Source: a virus. From it: a stretch of DNA of 35,731 nt. Below, in pieces: positions 15,418 to 28,116 of this stretch. The notes beneath the pieces are model-generated. The model was given only the letters and a program-made list of their open reading frames with translations. It was not told where the DNA came from and ran no database searches. Where the stretch lies: IMG/VR virus record IMGVR_UViG_3300031772_000135, positions 1-35,731 of that record. One strand, written 5' to 3'. The translations under genes were made by a program, and so were the position numbers. Position 1 is the first letter of the stretch, and every line of letters starts with the position of its first letter.

Positions 15418-18400
15418 TTAAAAGATTTCGTGGTCAGATGCGGGGCCGGTGTTGCGCACGTCGCGCAACCATTCCCACACGTTGGCGTAATTTTCCCTTG
15501 GGTATTCACCTGCCCGCTGGAACTGGCGAATCTGAGCCTGGGCGATCTGGTGAAGGTCTTTGTCGCTCGTGCGCTTTGGGAAGGTGTGCCCGCCCACTGG
15601 CTTGCTGACCTTGTTCCAGTCGATTCTGATCGGGTCTTGCGGCCAGTCCGTGCCTTCTCGGTAGAGGACCGGCCAGTCTTCTGGTTTGCACTGAAAGTTC
15701 GGATCGTCGATCAAGTAGTAATTGATGGATGCGCAAGTCGGGAAGCGAAAGATGCGATAAATCCACCGCTGTCCTGGCAGGGCCACGTCCTTGACCTCGA
15801 AGTCGTCGTCTTCGGATTCGGGCAAGTTCACGTTGCGGTATCCCTGGCCAAAGTCTTGGCGCAACTCCCAGTCCTGCGTGACGACCCAGGTTTCGACGAC
15901 CGCGCCCAGCACAGCGCGGTTAATCTCCATATAGGCGATTTTCTCACGCTGGTCTTTCAGGTTGGTCTTGGCCCAGTCATAGGCGCTCTTGACCGAAACG
16001 AACGGCCCCTGGTTCTCCCATACTGGTTCTTGTTCCGGGTCGGCCAAATCGGAGTAGAAGTCATCGTAAGTGTAGTTGAGGTAGATTTCCTCATCGAGTT
16101 TGCTCAGCTCCTTGAGGTCGGCTTCCTCGTCTTCGGTCGCCTCGTGCAGGCTCTCCCGCACCTGGGCTTTTTGCTGGATCACGTCGCCGGAATGCCGAAT
16201 CAGGTCTGCCAAGCCGAAGTGTAGCGGGCTGGGCCAGTCGCCGAACTTTACCCAGGCAGAATCCTCGGTTTCGCGGGCTTCATCGGCACGGAGGTTAGGC
16301 TCAAACTGTTTGGGCACCAGGGCCAGGAAATTGTGGTAGCTGAAGGTGCCCTTCCTGAAGACATTGAGCGGGGTCAGCTTCATCGGGCCGGTGTAGCCGC
16401 TCTCTTCCCTGGCTTCGCGCTCGGCGGCGTCAGCCGGAGCTTCCCCCTCCTCGACGGCCCCGCCCCAGGTGCCCCAGGTATGGGGCTGCTCGACGCTGCC
16501 GGAGCGGCGGGGCAGAAGGATGAGGCCCGTGTCCTGGGCTAGGAAAATGCAGCCTGCGGCCTGTTCGCCCCAAAATCCAGTGCGTTGGAGAGCGTCCCAG
16601 TGGCTTCCTTCCTCGACCTTATTTTTGTAAACAATCGAATCGGGCTTGTCCAGTGGTCCCATCGCTTCCTTCCAGTCTTTGATGAACTGCTCAGGCGGCT
16701 GGCCATAGTGGACAACGATGCGCGAGCGATACTCCGGGTCGCGCTCATCAACCTCTTCGGCGATGCAGACGATGTGGTTGCTGCCACTGAAGCCGATGGG
16801 TTCCAACGACCGGCCAGTGGTGTTGAACGACCATTCCTTCATCATCAGGGGCCGGGCGGAAGCTTTCATTGTCCGGCTCAGCCGATCCTTGAAGTCAAGG
16901 AATTTAGTTTCGGCTTGATTGGCGTCCGGCACGGGCGGGGCATCGTCGTAGGTGCCGAACAGGTGCTCCCACTCGTTTCGGTAGTGGCTCTTGTCCCAGT
17001 CAGTCGAGTAGGAAACCATGCGCTCCAGCATGATCCGGTAGCCTTCGTCGAACAGCATCTTGCGGACGGTTGTGGCCAACTCCGGCGAGGTCTTGTCTCC
17101 AAATTTGTGCAAGAGCTGCTTCGCGGCATCATCTGCCCACTGGACCTTGGCCTTGTCCGCCAGTTTGCCGTAGTAGTTCTCCTCGTCGCGCATCCGATCA
17201 CGATAGACTTCGGCGAAATAGGGCCAGATGTGCGAGTAAACATGGTCGCTGATGTGACGGGCCAAGGCGATGATGCTGCTGCCCAGGGAGTCCTCGTCAC
17301 CCACGAGCGAGCGGGGCTGAAGTTCCATGACAACGATGAGCGGGTTCACCTTGTCGCGCCGGGATACTTTGCCCGCTGACGAGATGGCCGTCATCAGGTT
17401 GGTAGTGACGTAAACCCCGCTCAGGCTCTTGCGTGTGGGCTGGATCATGCCCGCGTTCGGGTCTTCGCTCCAGGCGCGGGCTTTGGGTTCCGGGATCAAT
17501 CCCTGCGCCAGAATTTTGGGCAGGAGCTTCGAGGTCGTGCCATGGTAGAAGATGGCCCGTTCGCCCTCAGCCCCGCCGTAACGCTCTTCCAGGGTTTCGC
17601 GCATCGTCTTAGGCTTGATGCTAACCATAAAGCCACGGGGATACACGTCCTGGGGAGCCGCGAAAACGATGTTCCGGGTGATTTCTACGGAAGGCGTGTC
17701 CATGAATCGGAAGATGATCTTGTCGAGGGCATAGCCGCCGTCCCAGTGGTCGGTCTTGATGCTGCCATTGACGTAGGCGTTTTCCGGGTTCATCGCGCCC
17801 TCAACGACCGCAACGTCGGTTATGCCAGGCGTAACAGAAAGCACTTTGGCGATCTCCTGGGCAACCTCCATCGGTGTGCTGGGCAGGGCCACGTCCTTGA
17901 TCTCAAAGTCACTTTCCTTGGCTTCGTCCAACTGCTCCCGTTCCTGCTCTGGAAAGTCCAGGGGGTCAGGGCTGCTGAAGAACCGCCTGAAGTCGATGTT
18001 GCTGGCCGTGAAAGACGCCCCATCGCCCTGGCTCCAGAAACCGCTGTAACTGATCTCGACATCATTGAAGCCCTTGTTGCGAAGGAGCCATCTCCATTCG
18101 GCGATGACCGGCTCGGACCAATAGTTGTCGCCTTCATTGGTCTCGTTCCACCATTCCCGCGCCTTTTCTTTGGCTTCATCATCGAGCTGGTCGTATTGAA
18201 AGCCGCCTGCGTCGTCCGTTTTGCCGTCCGCGTTGAAGGTGTAGTTGTTGGCGCGGATGTTGTCGGCAACCACTTCCTCTTCGTGTTCCGCTTCGTAGCT
18301 GGCCTCCAACTCCTGGTAAATCTTGTGGTTCCAATCATAAAGCCGCTTCTGGATGTATTCTTCCAGATCACTGATGAGCTTGTCGGTGCGATCTTCTTCA

Positions 18401-18984
18401 GCGACACTCTGGTTGCGGGTCATGCCGTCCGGCCAGTTGTAGGAGTTATACAGCTCGACTTCCGTGGTGCGTTCGTGGACGTAGTGATGGTTCGTGCGCA
18501 CCACGTTTCCGCTGAGTTCGAGGATGCCTTGATCGAATAGCTGGGCCAGCTCCTCGAAAGGACTCAGGGAGCCTCCCATTGACACATCCTTTATGTCGAA
18601 GTCGTCGTCGGCGGATTCTTGCAGTTCGCCGCCCAGGATGGCCGCGAATGGCACCCACTTGTCCTGGTCCCAGGCCAGCAGCCGCGACCCGCGTTTCTTC
18701 ACCCACCGCAGGTCGATGCCCTTTTTATCGGCAATCTCGCGCAGCTTGTCGATGCCCTTCGCTTGGTCTTGTTGGTAATAGCCAATCGGAACGGAGCCGA
18801 ACTTGGGGGCCAGGCCGATGCGGGTCATCCAATTGAAGGCGCGGAACAGCTTGGCTTCGTTGCCCCAGATGCCGGGGCCGAGATCGACGGCCAATGGCTC
18901 GGTGGTGGAAAAGTAAACATCTTTCGATTCGAGTTCGTCCTCGTCTTCGAGCAAAACTTTCAGGATGTCGTCGATTTCACTCAT
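15418..18984 (-). CDS. giant multidomain protein: ART-like and Nudix domains with repeated acidic linkers
   Basis: 1188 residues from the ATG at 18984, which overlaps the upstream stop (ATGA). The frame is open 13 codons earlier. Order: N-terminal helix plus acid (SEIDDILKVLLEDEDELESK); a domain to about 122; linker DDDFDIKDVSMG (126-137); a domain with DDEAKEKAREWW (268-279) and SGFWSQGDGA (314-323), a pattern I recall from stand-alone phage proteins; linker KESDFEIKDVAL (356-367); an ART/KptA-like domain with YHGTTS (480-485) and GVYVTTN (523-529); a helical region; a Nudix hydrolase domain whose box runs Gly842, Glu848, REAREE (856-861); linker RESLHEATEDEEADLKEL (943-960); linker ESEDDDFEVKDVALPG (1056-1071); a C-terminal domain. 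ART and Nudix activities both act on NAD-type nucleotides. A virion-carried polyvalent effector is the best reading. Confidence 0.65.
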   Translation of the reverse strand: MSEIDDILKVLLEDEDELESKDVYFSTTEPLAVDLGPGIWGNEAKLFRAFNWMTRIGLAPKFGSVPIGYYQQDQAKGIDKLREIADKKGIDLRWVKKRGSRLLAWDQDKWVPFAAILGGELQESADDDFDIKDVSMGGSLSPFEELAQLFDQGILELSGNVVRTNHHYVHERTTEVELYNSYNWPDGMTRNQSVAEEDRTDKLISDLEEYIQKRLYDWNHKIYQELEASYEAEHEEEVVADNIRANNYTFNADGKTDDAGGFQYDQLDDEAKEKAREWWNETNEGDNYWSEPVIAEWRWLLRNKGFNDVEISYSGFWSQGDGASFTASNIDFRRFFSSPDPLDFPEQEREQLDEAKESDFEIKDVALPSTPMEVAQEIAKVLSVTPGITDVAVVEGAMNPENAYVNGSIKTDHWDGGYALDKIIFRFMDTPSVEITRNIVFAAPQDVYPRGFMVSIKPKTMRETLEERYGGAEGERAIFYHGTTSKLLPKILAQGLIPEPKARAWSEDPNAGMIQPTRKSLSGVYVTTNLMTAISSAGKVSRRDKVNPLIVVMELQPRSLVGDEDSLGSSIIALARHISDHVYSHIWPYFAEVYRDRMRDEENYYGKLADKAKVQWADDAAKQLLHKFGDKTSPELATTVRKMLFDEGYRIMLERMVSYSTDWDKSHYRNEWEHLFGTYDDAPPVPDANQAETKFLDFKDRLSRTMKASARPLMMKEWSFNTTGRSLEPIGFSGSNHIVCIAEEVDERDPEYRSRIVVHYGQPPEQFIKDWKEAMGPLDKPDSIVYKNKVEEGSHWDALQRTGFWGEQAAGCIFLAQDTGLILLPRRSGSVEQPHTWGTWGGAVEEGEAPADAAEREAREESGYTGPMKLTPLNVFRKGTFSYHNFLALVPKQFEPNLRADEARETEDSAWVKFGDWPSPLHFGLADLIRHSGDVIQQKAQVRESLHEATEDEEADLKELSKLDEEIYLNYTYDDFYSDLADPEQEPVWENQGPFVSVKSAYDWAKTNLKDQREKIAYMEINRAVLGAVVETWVVTQDWELRQDFGQGYRNVNLPESEDDDFEVKDVALPGQRWIYRIFRFPTCASINYYLIDDPNFQCKPEDWPVLYREGTDWPQDPIRIDWNKVSKPVGGHTFPKRTSDKDLHQIAQAQIRQFQRAGEYPRENYANVWEWLRDVRNTGPASDHEIF
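15430..15444 (-). repeat. dispersed motif CCCGCATCTGACCAC, copy
   Basis: Lies in the last codons of the giant gene (giving PASDHE), pointing to the 141-aa gene whose start is 47 nt further. Same one-base-longer form as the copy at 21704. Confidence 0.6.
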
Positions 18985-19466
18985 AGCAGCGGGTTGATCT
19001 CGATGCGCCATTGGCCGGTGCAACTTACTCGGAAGTCGGCGCTGTCCGTTATGGCCAGGGCAGAGCTGGCCGTGCTGTATTGGATGTTGTTTACGGCCAG
19101 CCAGGTGTAAATGCCGGGCACCGTGGTCACGAAGGGATTCTCGATGCGTGTGGAGACACCAAGGGCCGAGGCGGTCACTTTATCGAGCTTCGTGGTGGAA
19201 GCCGGATCGGCGTTGTTGTAATTGAAGAACAACGCCACGTAGCACATGCCCAGGCTCGAATTGATGTAGTTGGCGGGCACAATCTTCGTCAGGTCAACGG
19301 TCGAGCTGATGAAGTTCAGGTGAAGCATCCGCACGGTCAACCGCGACGGCGCGGTCAGCTTGATCGTGGCGATCACCACCCAGTCGGACATCTTGATCTC
19401 CGTGGACGGCAGGGCGATGGGCGCGTCCACCGTGTTGGCCATTTTGCGTTCAGTTAAAAAGCTCAT
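18981..19466 (-). CDS. virion-associated hypothetical protein, paralogue of 14957-15382
   Basis: 161 residues, ATG start, no clear ribosome-binding site. It shares D-A-P-I-A-L-P-S-T-E-I, V-R-M-L-H-L-N-F-I-S and N-S-S-L-G with the 141-aa protein at 14957-15382. The two paralogues bracket the giant ART/Nudix gene, suggesting duplication of a small structural gene with the giant gene lying or inserted between. Likely a small beta-rich virion component. Confidence 0.6.
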   Translation of the reverse strand: MSFLTERKMANTVDAPIALPSTEIKMSDWVVIATIKLTAPSRLTVRMLHLNFISSTVDLTKIVPANYINSSLGMCYVALFFNYNNADPASTTKLDKVTASALGVSTRIENPFVTTVPGIYTWLAVNNIQYSTASSALAITDSADFRVSCTGQWRIEINPLL

Positions 19467-23058: not shown

Positions 23059-26000
23059 TCAAACCTTGAAGGTTTTGACGCGGGTGTAGCCCAGGGGTAG
23101 GTTGATCTCGATGGGCGGCTTCTCCTGGATTAGTCCCTCCAGGTTGTGTGTGGCGTGGATACGCGGGTTGTTGGGGGACATGATCGTCACTTTTTCCTCG
23201 CTGTTGATGGCGTTGTTGTAGGCCCCGGCTGCGGCATCGCACGTATCTTTGCTATTATGAATGCTAATACCAGATTCTATGCAAAAGTTCTCGTAAGTAT
23301 CTACAGTTATGTCATATACAGGTTCTTCAATACACGTTTCTACTAACACAGACGTAACTTTGTGGTTAGAAAGACTTATTATTTCACGTTTTCCAAGTTT
23401 GGATAGAAAGTTACGCAGGCTGGCTTCTGAGAGGCCAGTAAGCCGGGACATTTCCTCTGGGCTTTTGCCGCGAAGTTTCTCGGCATTTTCGGTCCAATTT
23501 GTTCCACTAAGGCGTCGTTGCCAGGTCATCGAAGCACCACTGCCGGTGAGATGTATTGCGTGGCATGGGCCGAGTAAGTAGCTGCGCCACGGTGCGACCA
23601 GAGCGAGGGCGCGTTCGTCTTCTTTTGATCGGCGCAACAGCATGGCGCTGTAAACATTTTTACGATGTGTTTGCAGCCGATCTAAAGTCCAAGCGCCACG
23701 CTGGCTTAAATTGGTTTTTGAAGCGGTTTCGGATGATTTAGCGCGGCCTTCCTTCGATTTGGCGTAACTTGAAAGTTGGGTGAGTTTAGCTTCTCGGTAT
23801 TTGCGGCAAGACCAGAGTTTGAGATTGCGCTCTCGCACTTCACCCGGAGTAAACCTGTGGCTTCGGCTTCTGAATTTTGCTTTTCTGGTTTCGGGCAAGG
23901 CATCCCAGGCTTGTTTGGCTGCCGCTGATTTTCTGGTTTGCCATTCCAGGTTGGCTGCATATCTCTGTTTGAATGTTTCTGTGCGCTTTTTAACTACAGC
24001 CGGGTCTGAAGCTATTTTTGAAATGAGAATGTGCCTGCGATTATGTTCCGATTTTGTGAGTTTTTCAAGATTGTCAGGAGAATTATTTAGTGAATTTAGG
24101 TCTTGGTGGTGAATAACTTCTGCCGGACTCGCAGCGAAACCCAGATGATGGCTTACGAGTTGATGCGTGAACCGCCAGTTGCCGCCGCTCCAAACCTGTT
24201 CGTAGTAGCTTGAGCCTTTTTTATACTTTACTTTGTAGAGCTTGCGATGAAACGGCATCAGAGAGTCGCCAGGGCTGAGATCAGAAGCTTTTCGGAAATT
24301 GCCGTCGCGCAGCATGAAGGGATGTTCTGGAGTGCAGCGAATGCTCTGACCGTTGTCGAGCGTGATTTTGAACAGGGTGTTTATATGCCGCGTAATTCGC
24401 GCTGCTGTTGCTTTTGCAGGCACGATGTTGCCGTGGCCGTCATTAGCATAGACCCACACTGTTCCGGTTCTGCCAACTAAATCGGAAATTGGAGGGCAAG
24501 TGCCATCGAGCAGTCGTATTTTAGTATCGCCGGTGACACAACCAACGGGCGGGTGATCGACCTTTTTGTCCGTGTCGAGCAGGTTCTCGGCCTCAGCCAG
24601 CATGTGGCGGTGTCGATAGGGCCGCAGGCGCAGTTCCTCGACGGCCATGCGCCAGTTGATGTAGGCGTCTTTGTTCCGGTCAAGGCTCTGCTTATCCACT
24701 TTGAAGCCACGGGCTTCGAGCATCTGGAGGGACATCTCAGAGTTATGGGAGATAAAGCCATTAGCCGTGTAAGAATGGCTCTGTTCGACTTCTAAATCAT
24801 AAACATCCTCAACGGCGGGTTCAACTTTGGCGATGCGTTCTAGGTGGGTTCGGCCAGGGCGCTGGAGGTGATGGTAGAGGGCTTCCATCTTGTTTCGGTA
24901 GCAGAATCCAATGGACTTATAGAAATTTTGTCGGGAGCCGCGCAGACGGACATGATAAATGAGTTTTTGTTTTTCAAAGCCCAGTCGCTTATAGGGAACT
25001 AATGTTGTTTTTATGCCGAAGATAGTTCTGAGGATAACCATGACTTGGCGGGCTAGAGCATAGTGGCTTGTGGTGAGGGTTACAGCGCCGTCGTTTTTAT
25101 CCACCGTTCCGTCTGCTGAGTAGAGGCCGCGTAAAAAAGCGGCTAGGATTGGTTGGGTGCTCTGTAGCACTTTAGCGGGAATGCGCAAAGTTGCGCCATT
25201 GCCTTTGGCAGTTCCTTTTAGGAATTCATTGTGAATTAGCCAACGCGCCATTTTGCGGCAAAATACGCTTATTTGACAGTAGTTTCTGCCGATGTCCCAG
25301 TGTTTTGGAACTTCTCCGAAAAATTTAAAAAGCAGGTTATGAAGGTCTTTTGCGTGTTCTTTGTGCAGACTAAACCGTAGCCCATTGTTGACGCTCAGGC
25401 TGCCGTCTCCCCACAGCAATCCTAAGATTTCGGCTAGATCGGGCGTAAGGCAGGCAGGATAGATGAATTTTTTAAGTGTTCGACTAGGTCCAAGCTCAGG
25501 CGGGTTTATCGGTGCGTCAGAGCGGCTTTGCGCTTTTACCGGGCGTTCAACCATTTGGACAATATCTCCAGGCTTTAGCTGGTCAAGGCGGGTCCATTGA
25601 TATTCTGGTTTTTTCCATGGTTTGGGATTTATCCAAGCCATAATCCGGTGGTTGGGTGTTCCGCACAGGGTTTCTTTGCGGCGAGTAGTAATTCGCAAAA
25701 CCGGAGCTAGGGCGTAGCGGTGAAGATTCGTGACACGGCTAAGGCCCTTACTTCCGTGAACTTTATCACCCATTCTGATTTCAGTAATGGGCAAGAGGCC
25801 ACGATCAGTGTTTACCAGAGTATCGGCGCTCAAGCACTGGAATTGGTCGAACGTGACCAGGCCGAAATTGTAGCCGCACTTGGTTGCCAGCCAGAGTAGA
25901 AAGTTCTGAATTTTCTCCAAGCTGATGGGCTTAATTTGGCCCGCCACGATGGTCAGGATGAAATCGTATTCGACGATTAGCCGGTAGTCCGAGAAAGGCA

Positions 26001-27504
26001 CGCCGGGATTGGAGGAGGACACCATGCCCTCGATGAGCTGCTTGCCGACCAGGTGACAGACGGCCACGCCCGCCATGGTCTGCGTGGCCAGGTCGATGTG
26101 GGCATAGCGCATCGAATAAGGATGGCGCTTGGGGATGATCTGCGACTGGACGCGGGTCAGGAACGTCCGGTGGTCCAGGTAGTCCCAAATGTTTTTGGAA
26201 TCCTCCATCGAGCACGGGATCATTTCCAGGCCGGACGTTACCGGACAGACCACGCCTTCTTTCTCGGCCAGTTCCGTGCATCGCTCGAAGTCCACCATCG
26301 AGCCGAACCAGCGATTGACGCCGCCGGTGCTGATGCCGCACACGTCCCGGAGAGCGTTTAGCGGACGGCGTTTGAACTCCGAGTGGTAAAGCTCCGGCAC
26401 CAGTTCCGTGCTTATGCCCGGCGCGGGAGCTTCGTGGGCCTCGTCGCCGGTTGGCGTGCCTTGTTCGTCATACCAGCCCGACAGCATCATTGGCGGGATG
26501 TTCTTCAGGCCGTAGGCGACCTTGAACCAGCGCGGGCCAAGCTGGAGCGCGTGCCGCTTGATTTTGTAAACGGAGTTTCGATAGACCTTCTGTGTTGCCG
26601 GGTCATGGGCGTTTTCGATCTCCTTGATGATTGTTTCCGTGAAGGACGATTCATCCTTGGCCGATGACGCCAGGATCGAGATGGCGGGCAGATAGCCGCT
26701 GACCTTGCGGAAGCGGTTGTTGATACGGTTGCGGACCTCGTTGAACAGCTCGTAAGCCTTGGTGTCCGGCTCCGCTTCCAAGCGCCAGTTGCCTTCATCC
26801 AGGCCCACGCCAATGATGTTGCGGCCCAGTAAGTGCTGGCCTCTTGACCCGGCAGTCAGCATCAACGAGTTCTTCAGCGGAATGCGGTAGTTGGTGTAAC
26901 TGTTGTCCGGGTTGTAACTGCACTCCTCCAGGAAGTAGGGGCAGTTCGACATGAAGTTCTGCGCGTCGCCGAAGGCCGTCTCGGTTACGGCTGCCTTGGT
27001 GATCGACAGAAGGTTGAAGACGATCTTGGTGCCCCGCGTCAGGCCGAAGAAGTTGTGCGGGTTCCGCAGCAGCGTGGCCAGGAGCATTCGGTAGAGGAGG
27101 ATCGTGACCATGACGAAAGTTTTTCCCGTGCCCAATGAGCCAGTGATAACGCAGTTGTGGATCGCACTGTCGTAGTTGAAGTCTGCGGTCAGGATGGCTT
27201 TCCAGGTCGGGAACAGGCCCTCAGAGTCCTGGCTTTTGACCATCAGCGACCCCAGGTAGAAGGGGTCTTCCAGGAATTCGCCCATGGTGGGCGGCTTCTC
27301 CACGTAGTCGGCCACGTTGAGCTGCTGAAGCAATTCGGAGTCGCCGGACTCACGGAACTGGGTCAGCATATCCTCCCAAATACCTCTGCCGTAGGGAGAG
27401 AGGGACGCGAGCATAGCGCCGATGTTTTCGCCTTGGAGGCCCTTGGCAAGCACATCTTCCACCTGCTCTGTCAGAGTCTTTTTGTTTACCTTTCCGATAG
27501 GCAT
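23059..27504 (-). CDS. terL: terminase large subunit with two inteins
   Basis: 1481 residues as encoded, about 687 after removal of two inteins (557-921 and 989-1417). ATPase half: GSLGTGKT (122-129, Walker A) and IIGVGLDEGNW (230-240, Walker B with Asp236-Glu237). Nuclease half (RNase H-like): YAHIDLATQ (first Asp near 472), LVTFDQFQ (Asp553) and SKDTCDAAAGA (1418-1428, last acidic residues). It packages phage DNA into the prohead using ATP and cuts the concatemer. Intein 1 follows FDQFQ and intein 2 precedes SKDTCDA, so both interrupt the nuclease centre and an active enzyme requires splicing. The ATG leader (GGGTTAGGT) lies in the divergent region shared with an HNH gene. Confidence 0.85.
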   Translation of the reverse strand: MPIGKVNKKTLTEQVEDVLAKGLQGENIGAMLASLSPYGRGIWEDMLTQFRESGDSELLQQLNVADYVEKPPTMGEFLEDPFYLGSLMVKSQDSEGLFPTWKAILTADFNYDSAIHNCVITGSLGTGKTFVMVTILLYRMLLATLLRNPHNFFGLTRGTKIVFNLLSITKAAVTETAFGDAQNFMSNCPYFLEECSYNPDNSYTNYRIPLKNSLMLTAGSRGQHLLGRNIIGVGLDEGNWRLEAEPDTKAYELFNEVRNRINNRFRKVSGYLPAISILASSAKDESSFTETIIKEIENAHDPATQKVYRNSVYKIKRHALQLGPRWFKVAYGLKNIPPMMLSGWYDEQGTPTGDEAHEAPAPGISTELVPELYHSEFKRRPLNALRDVCGISTGGVNRWFGSMVDFERCTELAEKEGVVCPVTSGLEMIPCSMEDSKNIWDYLDHRTFLTRVQSQIIPKRHPYSMRYAHIDLATQTMAGVAVCHLVGKQLIEGMVSSSNPGVPFSDYRLIVEYDFILTIVAGQIKPISLEKIQNFLLWLATKCGYNFGLVTFDQFQCLSADTLVNTDRGLLPITEIRMGDKVHGSKGLSRVTNLHRYALAPVLRITTRRKETLCGTPNHRIMAWINPKPWKKPEYQWTRLDQLKPGDIVQMVERPVKAQSRSDAPINPPELGPSRTLKKFIYPACLTPDLAEILGLLWGDGSLSVNNGLRFSLHKEHAKDLHNLLFKFFGEVPKHWDIGRNYCQISVFCRKMARWLIHNEFLKGTAKGNGATLRIPAKVLQSTQPILAAFLRGLYSADGTVDKNDGAVTLTTSHYALARQVMVILRTIFGIKTTLVPYKRLGFEKQKLIYHVRLRGSRQNFYKSIGFCYRNKMEALYHHLQRPGRTHLERIAKVEPAVEDVYDLEVEQSHSYTANGFISHNSEMSLQMLEARGFKVDKQSLDRNKDAYINWRMAVEELRLRPYRHRHMLAEAENLLDTDKKVDHPPVGCVTGDTKIRLLDGTCPPISDLVGRTGTVWVYANDGHGNIVPAKATAARITRHINTLFKITLDNGQSIRCTPEHPFMLRDGNFRKASDLSPGDSLMPFHRKLYKVKYKKGSSYYEQVWSGGNWRFTHQLVSHHLGFAASPAEVIHHQDLNSLNNSPDNLEKLTKSEHNRRHILISKIASDPAVVKKRTETFKQRYAANLEWQTRKSAAAKQAWDALPETRKAKFRSRSHRFTPGEVRERNLKLWSCRKYREAKLTQLSSYAKSKEGRAKSSETASKTNLSQRGAWTLDRLQTHRKNVYSAMLLRRSKEDERALALVAPWRSYLLGPCHAIHLTGSGASMTWQRRLSGTNWTENAEKLRGKSPEEMSRLTGLSEASLRNFLSKLGKREIISLSNHKVTSVLVETCIEEPVYDITVDTYENFCIESGISIHNSKDTCDAAAGAYNNAINSEEKVTIMSPNNPRIHATHNLEGLIQEKPPIEINLPLGYTRVKTFKV
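23254..24540 (-). mobile_element. intein 2 (HNH type) in terminase
   Basis: 429 residues (989-1417). Begins Cys-VTGDTKIRLLDG (block A), has RCTPEHPFML (block B), an HNH nuclease with HHQDLNSLNNSPDNLEKL (about 1130-1150), long basic helices that probably read DNA, and ends VYDITVDTYENF then IHN at Asn1417 before Ser1418. Only 67 extein residues separate it from intein 1. The endonuclease class differs from intein 1, so the two were acquired independently. Confidence 0.85.
24742..25836 (-). mobile_element. intein 1 (LAGLIDADG type) in terminase
   Basis: 365 residues (557-921 of the precursor). Begins Cys-LSADTLVNTD (block A), has GTPNHR (block B), two LAGLIDADG helices (AEILGLLWGDGSL near 690 and FLRGLYSADGTV near 795), and ends VYDLEVEQSHSYTANGFISH then Asn921 before Ser922. 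These are all the residues of a class 1 intein with a homing endonuclease. The DNA is visibly more AT-rich than the exteins. It sits directly after FDQFQ, next to a nuclease Asp. Confidence 0.85.
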
Positions 27505-27600: not shown

Positions 27601-28116
27601 ATGTGGCGTCGGAAAAAGCGAACTCGCAAAGCACCTAAAGCACCTAAAGCACGCAGTAAAGCAGAGAAGTGCTTGATCCGGTGGTGCCGCAATAAAGGGG
27701 CCATTAACAGCTCTGGCCGCAGGCTTCGGCTGTGCTGGAAATGCCGGTCACGGCAGCTCAAGAAGCGGCACCCGGAGACCTACGTCCTCAATTCCATACG
27801 CCAGCGAACCAAGGCACGCGGGCTGCCTTTCACCATCACTCTGGTTGAGTTCCGGCAGTGGTGCCGCCAAACCAACTATCTCGAATTACGTGGGCAGGAG
27901 CCGAACTCGATGACCATTGACCGGATCGACCACGATAAGGGCTACCATATTTGGAATATCCAGTTGCTAAGCCACGCCGAGAACAGTGAGAAAGGGCATG
28001 TTGTTCCTGGCCGGGAGACCAAGCAGAATGAGCCAGGCCCGGAGATTTACGATTACGATTTTGGCGGTCCTCCGCCCGATTACCAGCCGCCCACGGACCC
28101 AACTTGTCCCTTCTAA
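27601..28116 (+). CDS. HNH-type endonuclease (phage homing type)
   Basis: 171 residues. A Lys/Arg/Ala/Pro-rich N-terminus (RKKRTRKAPKAPKA) leads to Cys pairs that can bind zinc (CLIRWC and LCWKC), then the segment SMTIDRIDHDKGYHIWNIQL with LSHAENSEKG. This I-D-R-I-D-x-x-x-G-Y-x-x-x-N-I-Q/N-x-x-K-G pattern is the catalytic core of a small HNH-like family common in phages. It lies divergently next to the intein-bearing terminase, as expected of a free-standing homing endonuclease. The ending is acidic and proline-rich. Confidence 0.65.
   Translation: MWRRKKRTRKAPKAPKARSKAEKCLIRWCRNKGAINSSGRRLRLCWKCRSRQLKKRHPETYVLNSIRQRTKARGLPFTITLVEFRQWCRQTNYLELRGQEPNSMTIDRIDHDKGYHIWNIQLLSHAENSEKGHVVPGRETKQNEPGPEIYDYDFGGPPPDYQPPTDPTCPF

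What the first reader, a model, noticed from the sequence alone, without database searches (positions are those of the whole stretch)
23059..27504. Terminase with two inteins of different endonuclease class inside the nuclease centre
A LAGLIDADG intein follows FDQFQ, and an HNH intein precedes SKDTCDAAAGA. They are only 67 extein residues apart, and both interrupt RNase H-fold motifs needed for DNA cutting. Both have Cys1, terminal His-Asn and a Ser at +1. The packaging nuclease therefore depends on two splicing events, which may also delay nuclease activity until late infection.
Basis: partly seen in the sequence, partly recalled or inferred. Interest (0 to 1): 0.6.

Follow-up and report, generated by a model that had tools for sequence, protein, structure and literature searches.

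The report
Phage packaging enzyme with two inteins
A virus of bacteria (a phage) carries two self-removing protein parasites of different types inside the cutting site of its DNA-packaging enzyme; a close relative carries neither, and database searches show that these two positions are recurrent landing sites, with one other phage carrying five such insertions in the same gene.

Summary
ORF 23059-27504(-) is a large terminase (TerL) precursor of 1481 aa with two complete class-1 inteins: a 365-aa LAGLIDADG intein (24742-25836) and a 429-aa HNH intein (23254-24540), 67 extein residues apart. A relative (L002, 91% protein and 85% DNA identity) has both sites empty, and its TerL is exactly the predicted 687 aa. 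An AlphaFold model plus alignment to phage G20c terminase puts intein 1 three residues after catalytic Asp553 (motif II) and intein 2 two residues before catalytic Asp626 (motif III). Both are compositional outliers, suggesting recent arrival. Best reading: two independent selfish homing elements. Motif III is a recurrent TerL intein site (35 viral contigs); motif II is rarer (5). Intein 2 belongs to a TerL-dwelling HNH family; intein 1 does not. Two-intein TerLs are already published (Mic1, a crAss-like phage), so this is a new variant: both inteins in the nuclease domain, different endonuclease classes. 'Delay until late infection' has no support. Most surprising by-products: a relative with FIVE inteins in one TerL (L147), and three TerLs broken by probable split inteins. 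Splicing and homing were not tested.

The parts
23059..27504 (-). terL precursor gene, 1481 aa
   Evidence: single open frame; homology to annotated phage terminases; terminase fold of the 91% identical L002 protein
25837..27504 (-). N-extein, aa 1-556: ATPase domain (Walker A GSLGTGKT, Walker B LDE) and nuclease motifs I and II up to FDQFQ
24742..25836 (-). intein 1, 365 aa, LAGLIDADG, at nuclease motif II, 3 residues after Asp553
   Evidence: empty in L002
24541..24741 (-). middle extein, 67 aa, between motifs II and III
23254..24540 (-). intein 2, 429 aa, HNH, immediately before motif III SKD, 2 residues before Asp626 of the mature protein
   Evidence: empty in L002
23059..23253 (-). C-extein, 64 aa plus stop, with motif III SKDTCDAAAGA

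Best explanation
A phage terL gene doubly invaded by two independent, probably recent, selfish inteins. Each sits at a catalytic motif of the RNase H-fold nuclease (LAGLIDADG at motif II, HNH at motif III). Each probably spreads by homing: its endonuclease cuts intein-free terL alleles near the junction and the intein is copied in by repair. Each removes itself from the TerL precursor by class-1 protein splicing, giving a normal 687-aa terminase. Shown: anatomy, intact catalytic residues, empty natural alleles, motif positions, foreign composition, recurrent use of the same sites. Inferred: that both splice, that both endonucleases cut, and that unspliced TerL lacks nuclease activity.
For: All splicing and endonuclease residues intact. 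Natural 687-aa intein-free allele with both sites empty. Model of the L002 TerL matches solved terminases, nuclease domain against G20c Z 16.0 over 173 residues, and the register puts the junctions beside Asp553 and Asp626. Intein 2 model has a high-confidence Hint fold matching solved inteins. Intein GC3 0.485 and 0.457 against about 0.80 in the extein, outlying among 34 other TerL inteins. The same positions are occupied in other contigs: 35 at motif III, 5 at motif II. Intein-free sister clade. Unrelated intein lineages at motif II. Homing of TerL inteins onto empty partner alleles is shown for mycobacteriophages (PMC5050341).
Against: No splicing or cleavage data. No close relative of either intein was found, so the donor is unknown. 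A few other window genes also have low GC3, so composition alone does not prove recent arrival.
Confidence: 0.85

Rival explanations
1. Regulatory double gate: the two inteins splice conditionally (redox, DNA, temperature or timing) so that the packaging nuclease is held inactive until late infection.
For: Both junctions lie beside metal-binding Asp residues, so unspliced protein should lack nuclease activity. A control role was proposed, without data, for the two TerL inteins of Mic1 (PMC7156551).
Against: The closest relatives carry no inteins, occupancy is patchy, foreign composition suggests recent arrival. No timing data.
Confidence: 0.07
2. Decaying passengers: one or both inteins still splice but their endonucleases are already inactive, so they are vertically inherited residents rather than active homing elements.
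For: Homing activity is untested. Endonuclease-free mini-inteins exist at the same motif III site in other phages.
Against: Both endonuclease motifs are intact in the window; sister alleles are empty; composition is foreign.
Confidence: 0.12
3. Assembly or sequencing artefact that joins unrelated inteins into a terminase gene.
For: Only one metagenomic contig carries this exact arrangement.
Against: A 4.4-kb continuous frame, exact codon-phase junctions with Cys1 and HN|S at both sites, all catalytic residues intact, and motif II plus motif III inteins together also in L147.
Confidence: 0.02

Closest known systems
Microcystis phage Mic1 TerL (MN013189; PMC7156551)
   Same: One TerL with two inteins, one with a homing endonuclease; one of them in the nuclease domain just before the motif III Asp.
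   Different: Mic1's other intein is in the ATPase domain and its nuclease-domain intein is a mini-intein followed by Cys+1. The window has both in the nuclease domain, both with endonucleases, of two classes.
crAss-like phage OBYQ01000140 TerL with two Hint-Hop inteins (PMC7886860)
   Same: Two in-frame inteins splitting TerL into three extein pieces.
   Different: Both of one type, in a recoded gene with TAG codons; insertion sites not compared here.
Mycobacteriophage TerL inteins, sites a-g (PMC5050341)
   Same: Inteins at catalytic motifs of TerL with intein-free partner alleles; splicing and cleavage shown there.
   Different: All seven sites are in the ATPase domain; the window's are both in the nuclease domain.
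Motif III HNH inteins of uncultured phage TerLs (L103-L137, L030, L082)
   Same: Same junction (G|C...HN|SKD) and homologous to intein 2; best match L124 at 47% over 307 aa.
   Different: Most have no motif II intein; several are mini-inteins; some carry a Walker-A intein instead.
[quoted passage not shown]
   Same: Two inteins close together in one essential gene, with alleles carrying none or one.
   Different: Replicative helicase of archaea; homing shown experimentally.

Membership tests
Class 1 intein (both inserts) | Cys or Ser at position 1, TxxH in block B, block-F Asp, penultimate His and terminal Asn, Cys/Ser/Thr at +1 | tested here: met
   Invariant columns of the 30-intein alignment are present in both; positions; Ser+1 at both junctions
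Class 1 intein (both inserts) | Hint fold | tested here: met
   Pfam Intein_splicing for both; AlphaFold model of intein 2 matches solved inteins. Intein 1 was not modelled.
Class 1 intein (both inserts) | Self-excision with ligation of the exteins | not testable with these tools
   Needs expression; the natural 687-aa empty allele shows only that the predicted product is a viable TerL
LAGLIDADG homing endonuclease (intein 1) | Two LAGLIDADG motifs with acidic residues | tested here: met
   Pfam LAGLIDADG_3 1e-14; LGLLWGDGS at 138 and LRGLYSADGT at 235 of the intein
HNH homing endonuclease (intein 2) | HNH core | tested here: met
   HNH_3 1e-6 above its cut-off; IHHQD at 143, LNNSPDN at 151, EHNRRH at 165
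Homing endonuclease (both) | Cleavage of the intein-free allele | not testable with these tools
   A candidate target, the empty site of L002, is given
Terminase large subunit | Walker A and B and an RNase H-fold nuclease with three catalytic Asp | tested here: met
   Invariant residues over 30 TerLs; fold of L002 TerL against P74-26, HK97, T4 and G20c terminases; Asp register
Terminase large subunit | Match to a curated terminase profile | tested here: inconclusive
   No Pfam or PHROGs terminase hit for the 687-aa relative; tblastn to annotated terminases at 23-28% identity
Mic1-type double-intein TerL | Two inteins in one TerL, one in the ATPase and one in the nuclease domain | tested here: not met
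   Both window inteins are in the nuclease domain

The most novel reading that the evidence does not exclude
The catalytic motifs of this TerL lineage are shared landing sites that different intein families colonise repeatedly and jointly (up to five in one relative), and in the window's phage the two inteins act as an AND-gate, so that the packaging nuclease appears only after two conditional splicing events.
Probability: 0.07. Interest if true: 0.75.

Novelty: new variant of a known kind. Interest (0 to 1): 0.4.

Why it matters
The published mycobacteriophage TerL inteins all sit in the ATPase domain. This shows that nuclease motifs II and III are also recurrent landing sites, used by unrelated intein families, and gives natural empty, single, double and five-fold occupied alleles. 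That set would allow a direct test of whether co-resident inteins compete, cooperate or regulate packaging, and supplies closely spaced natural inteins for protein-splicing work.

Tried and rejected
(1) Close relatives of each intein: tblastn-confirmed scans of viral contigs and genome contigs found none; annotated phages held only distant inteins. Donors unknown.
(2) My first site-2 DNA pattern was one base short and found nothing; the corrected one found 35 contigs.
(3) Intein 1 and intein 2 as copies of one another: rejected (18% identity; different places in the tree; different endonucleases).
(4) Low intein GC as the normal state of TerL inteins: checked on 34 cases; the usual GC3 difference is small, so the window is an outlier.
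(5) Uniqueness of the motif II plus III double: rejected, L147 has both.
(6) A sequence search of the PDB with the extein profile gave nothing useful; fold comparison was needed.
(7) hhalign to the single G20c sequence has poor statistics (probability 0.3%); its register is used only because it agrees with the structural range, with the published catalytic residues (PMC5389553) and with invariant columns.
(8) In the intein tree some long branches meet (intein 1 with L147's first Walker-A intein; two L147 inteins together); these joins are not used.

Full report
OBSERVATION. The minus-strand ORF 23059-27504 encodes 1481 aa without interruption. It splits cleanly into a 687-aa extein and two inteins: aa 557-921 (365 aa; window 24742-25836) and aa 989-1417 (429 aa; 23254-24540), with 67 extein residues between. 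Pfam finds the intein splicing domain in both, LAGLIDADG_3 in the first and HNH_3 in the second. Cys1, TxxH, block-F Asp, His-Asn and Ser+1 are present in both, as are the two acidic LAGLIDADG motifs and the HNH core.

NATURAL EMPTY ALLELE. Viral contig L002 encodes a TerL of exactly 687 aa, identical to the window's extein at 628 of 687 positions and 85% identical at DNA level, aligned without gaps across both junctions. L010, L090 and L011 (90, 83 and 75% identical to L002 by protein) are also empty. In a tree of exteins the window is sister to L002 with strong support, inside a clade of intein-free genes. Whatever the inteins do, the sister phages do without them.

WHERE THE INTEINS SIT. 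The extein is a divergent TerL: its L002 counterpart has no Pfam or PHROGs terminase hit, but there is clear homology to annotated phage terminases, with Walker and Asp residues invariant over 30 TerLs. An AlphaFold model of L002 TerL (mean pLDDT 80.5) matches HK97, T4 and P74-26 terminases, and its C-terminal domain matches the G20c terminase nuclease (Z 16.0, rmsd 2.5 A, 173 residues). The alignment register (weak statistics, but consistent with the structural range and conserved columns) equates Asp553 with G20c Asp347 and Asp626 with G20c Asp429. Motif I, by conservation and order, is Asp471, taken as equivalent to Asp294. The three G20c residues were found indispensable for cleavage (PMC5389553). 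Intein 1 is inserted three residues after Asp553 and intein 2 two residues before Asp626. A precursor with either intein in place is therefore unlikely to assemble the two-metal site (inference); the ATPase domain upstream is complete.

HOW THEY PROBABLY GOT THERE. Third-position GC is 0.485 and 0.457 in the inteins against about 0.80 in the flanking extein. Across 34 other TerL intein cases the intein-minus-extein GC3 difference averages -0.06 (SD 0.08); the window's -0.32 and -0.34 are outliers. This suggests recent arrival from other genomes, with the caveat that a few other window genes are also low. Pattern scans of IMG/VR found 35 contigs with an intein at the motif III site (DHPxxG|C...HN|SKD) and 5 at motif II (D[GQ][FY]Q|C...HN|S). 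These counts come from a motif-defined search with some duplicate inteins; they are lower bounds, not prevalences. In a homology-based set of 80 TerL loci, two inteins lay at motif III and two distinct ones at or just before Walker A; one of the motif III ones is a contig that the pattern scan also found. Intein 2 belongs to an HNH family spread over motif III and, in L098, L099 and L102, over motif II; its best BLAST match is the motif III intein of L124 (47% over 307 aa). Intein 1 is not a member of that family. So motif II has been invaded by unrelated intein lineages, and the window's two inteins look like independent arrivals. Endonuclease-free mini-inteins at the same motif III site show a stage of decay. 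Splicing, and cleavage of empty partner alleles, are established for mycobacteriophage TerL inteins (PMC5050341).

NOVELTY. Two inteins in one TerL are published for Mic1 (ATPase plus nuclease; PMC7156551) and for a crAss-like phage (two Hint-Hop inteins; PMC7886860). Mycobacteriophage TerL inteins all sit in the ATPase domain (PMC5050341). I found no paper in the held library describing motif II inteins or a LAGLIDADG/HNH pair in one terminase nuclease, but that library is partial. In viral contigs, TerLs combining a Walker-A intein with a motif III HNH intein occur (for example L124 and L122), so mixed pairs are not unique. The window is a new variant, not a new kind.

THE MOST SURPRISING BY-PRODUCT. 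The TerL of contig G001 (read as L147; the same contig as L123) is a single 1661-aa frame with five inteins and a 607-aa extein. Two lie inside the P-loop only three extein residues apart (GIG|intein|SGK|intein|SYI), one follows motif I, one is at motif II and one at motif III. Pfam recognises each as an intein or Hint-type domain; the second carries a Hom_end (homing endonuclease) domain and the fifth HNH_3. It shows that the window's motif II plus III double is not unique and that these motifs can be filled together. Four inteins in one bacterial ribonucleotide reductase gene were reported earlier (Liu et al. 2003, as cited in PMC4649490); I have not established a record.

REGULATION. The suggestion that splicing delays nuclease activity until late infection is unsupported: no timing data, intein-free sisters, patchy occupancy. 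It is not excluded. Neighbouring inteins in haloarchaeal MCM hinder each other's co-homing into empty alleles and are more effective on alleles that already hold one intein (PMC10643990), which fits stepwise arrival here (inference).

LIMITS. Splicing and cleavage are inferred. The window is a 35.7-kb virus record; its host is unknown.

Noticed in passing
L147:735-5717 (contig IMGVR_UViG_3300033067_001561, also L123): A TerL gene with five inteins in one open frame: two inside the P-loop three residues apart, one after nuclease motif I, one at motif II, one at motif III.
   Followed up: partly
L108:327-3168, L119 (minus strand, terL region), L110 (minus strand): TerL genes broken at motif III: the N-half of an intein ends the first ORF after about 95 aa, and the C-half (..GVFVHN|SKD or similar) starts a separate downstream ORF. 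In L119 an ORF with an HNH_3 match lies in the gap. Probable split inteins, so TerL would be made by trans-splicing. L131 shows an N-half only.
   Followed up: partly
L098, L099, L102 (motif II inteins): HNH-family inteins related to the window's motif III intein sit at motif II in these TerLs, so one intein family occupies two different catalytic sites of the same enzyme.
   Followed up: yes
L095 (Lactobacillus phage CL2, KR905067) 506-2590: The annotated large terminase ends inside an intein N-part just after a motif III-like KAHDH|C, and the next gene is an HNH endonuclease: possibly another broken or split intein at motif III.
   Followed up: no
L091:1661-4840 (crAssphage cr53_1, NC_055889): TerL with a LAGLIDADG-type intein after WGTGGDEG, probably in the ATPase domain; the translated intein contains in-frame TAG codons, consistent with the recoding reported for crAss-like phages.
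   Followed up: no
window 15418-19023 (-): A 1201-aa ORF with PHROGs matches to an unknown family (phrog_5162), NUDIX hydrolase and a portal family: possibly a structural protein with a NUDIX insertion.
   Followed up: no
window 27601-28116 (+): A free-standing endonuclease VII / HNH-like gene lies next to terL on the opposite strand; its region is conserved at DNA level in L002.
   Followed up: no
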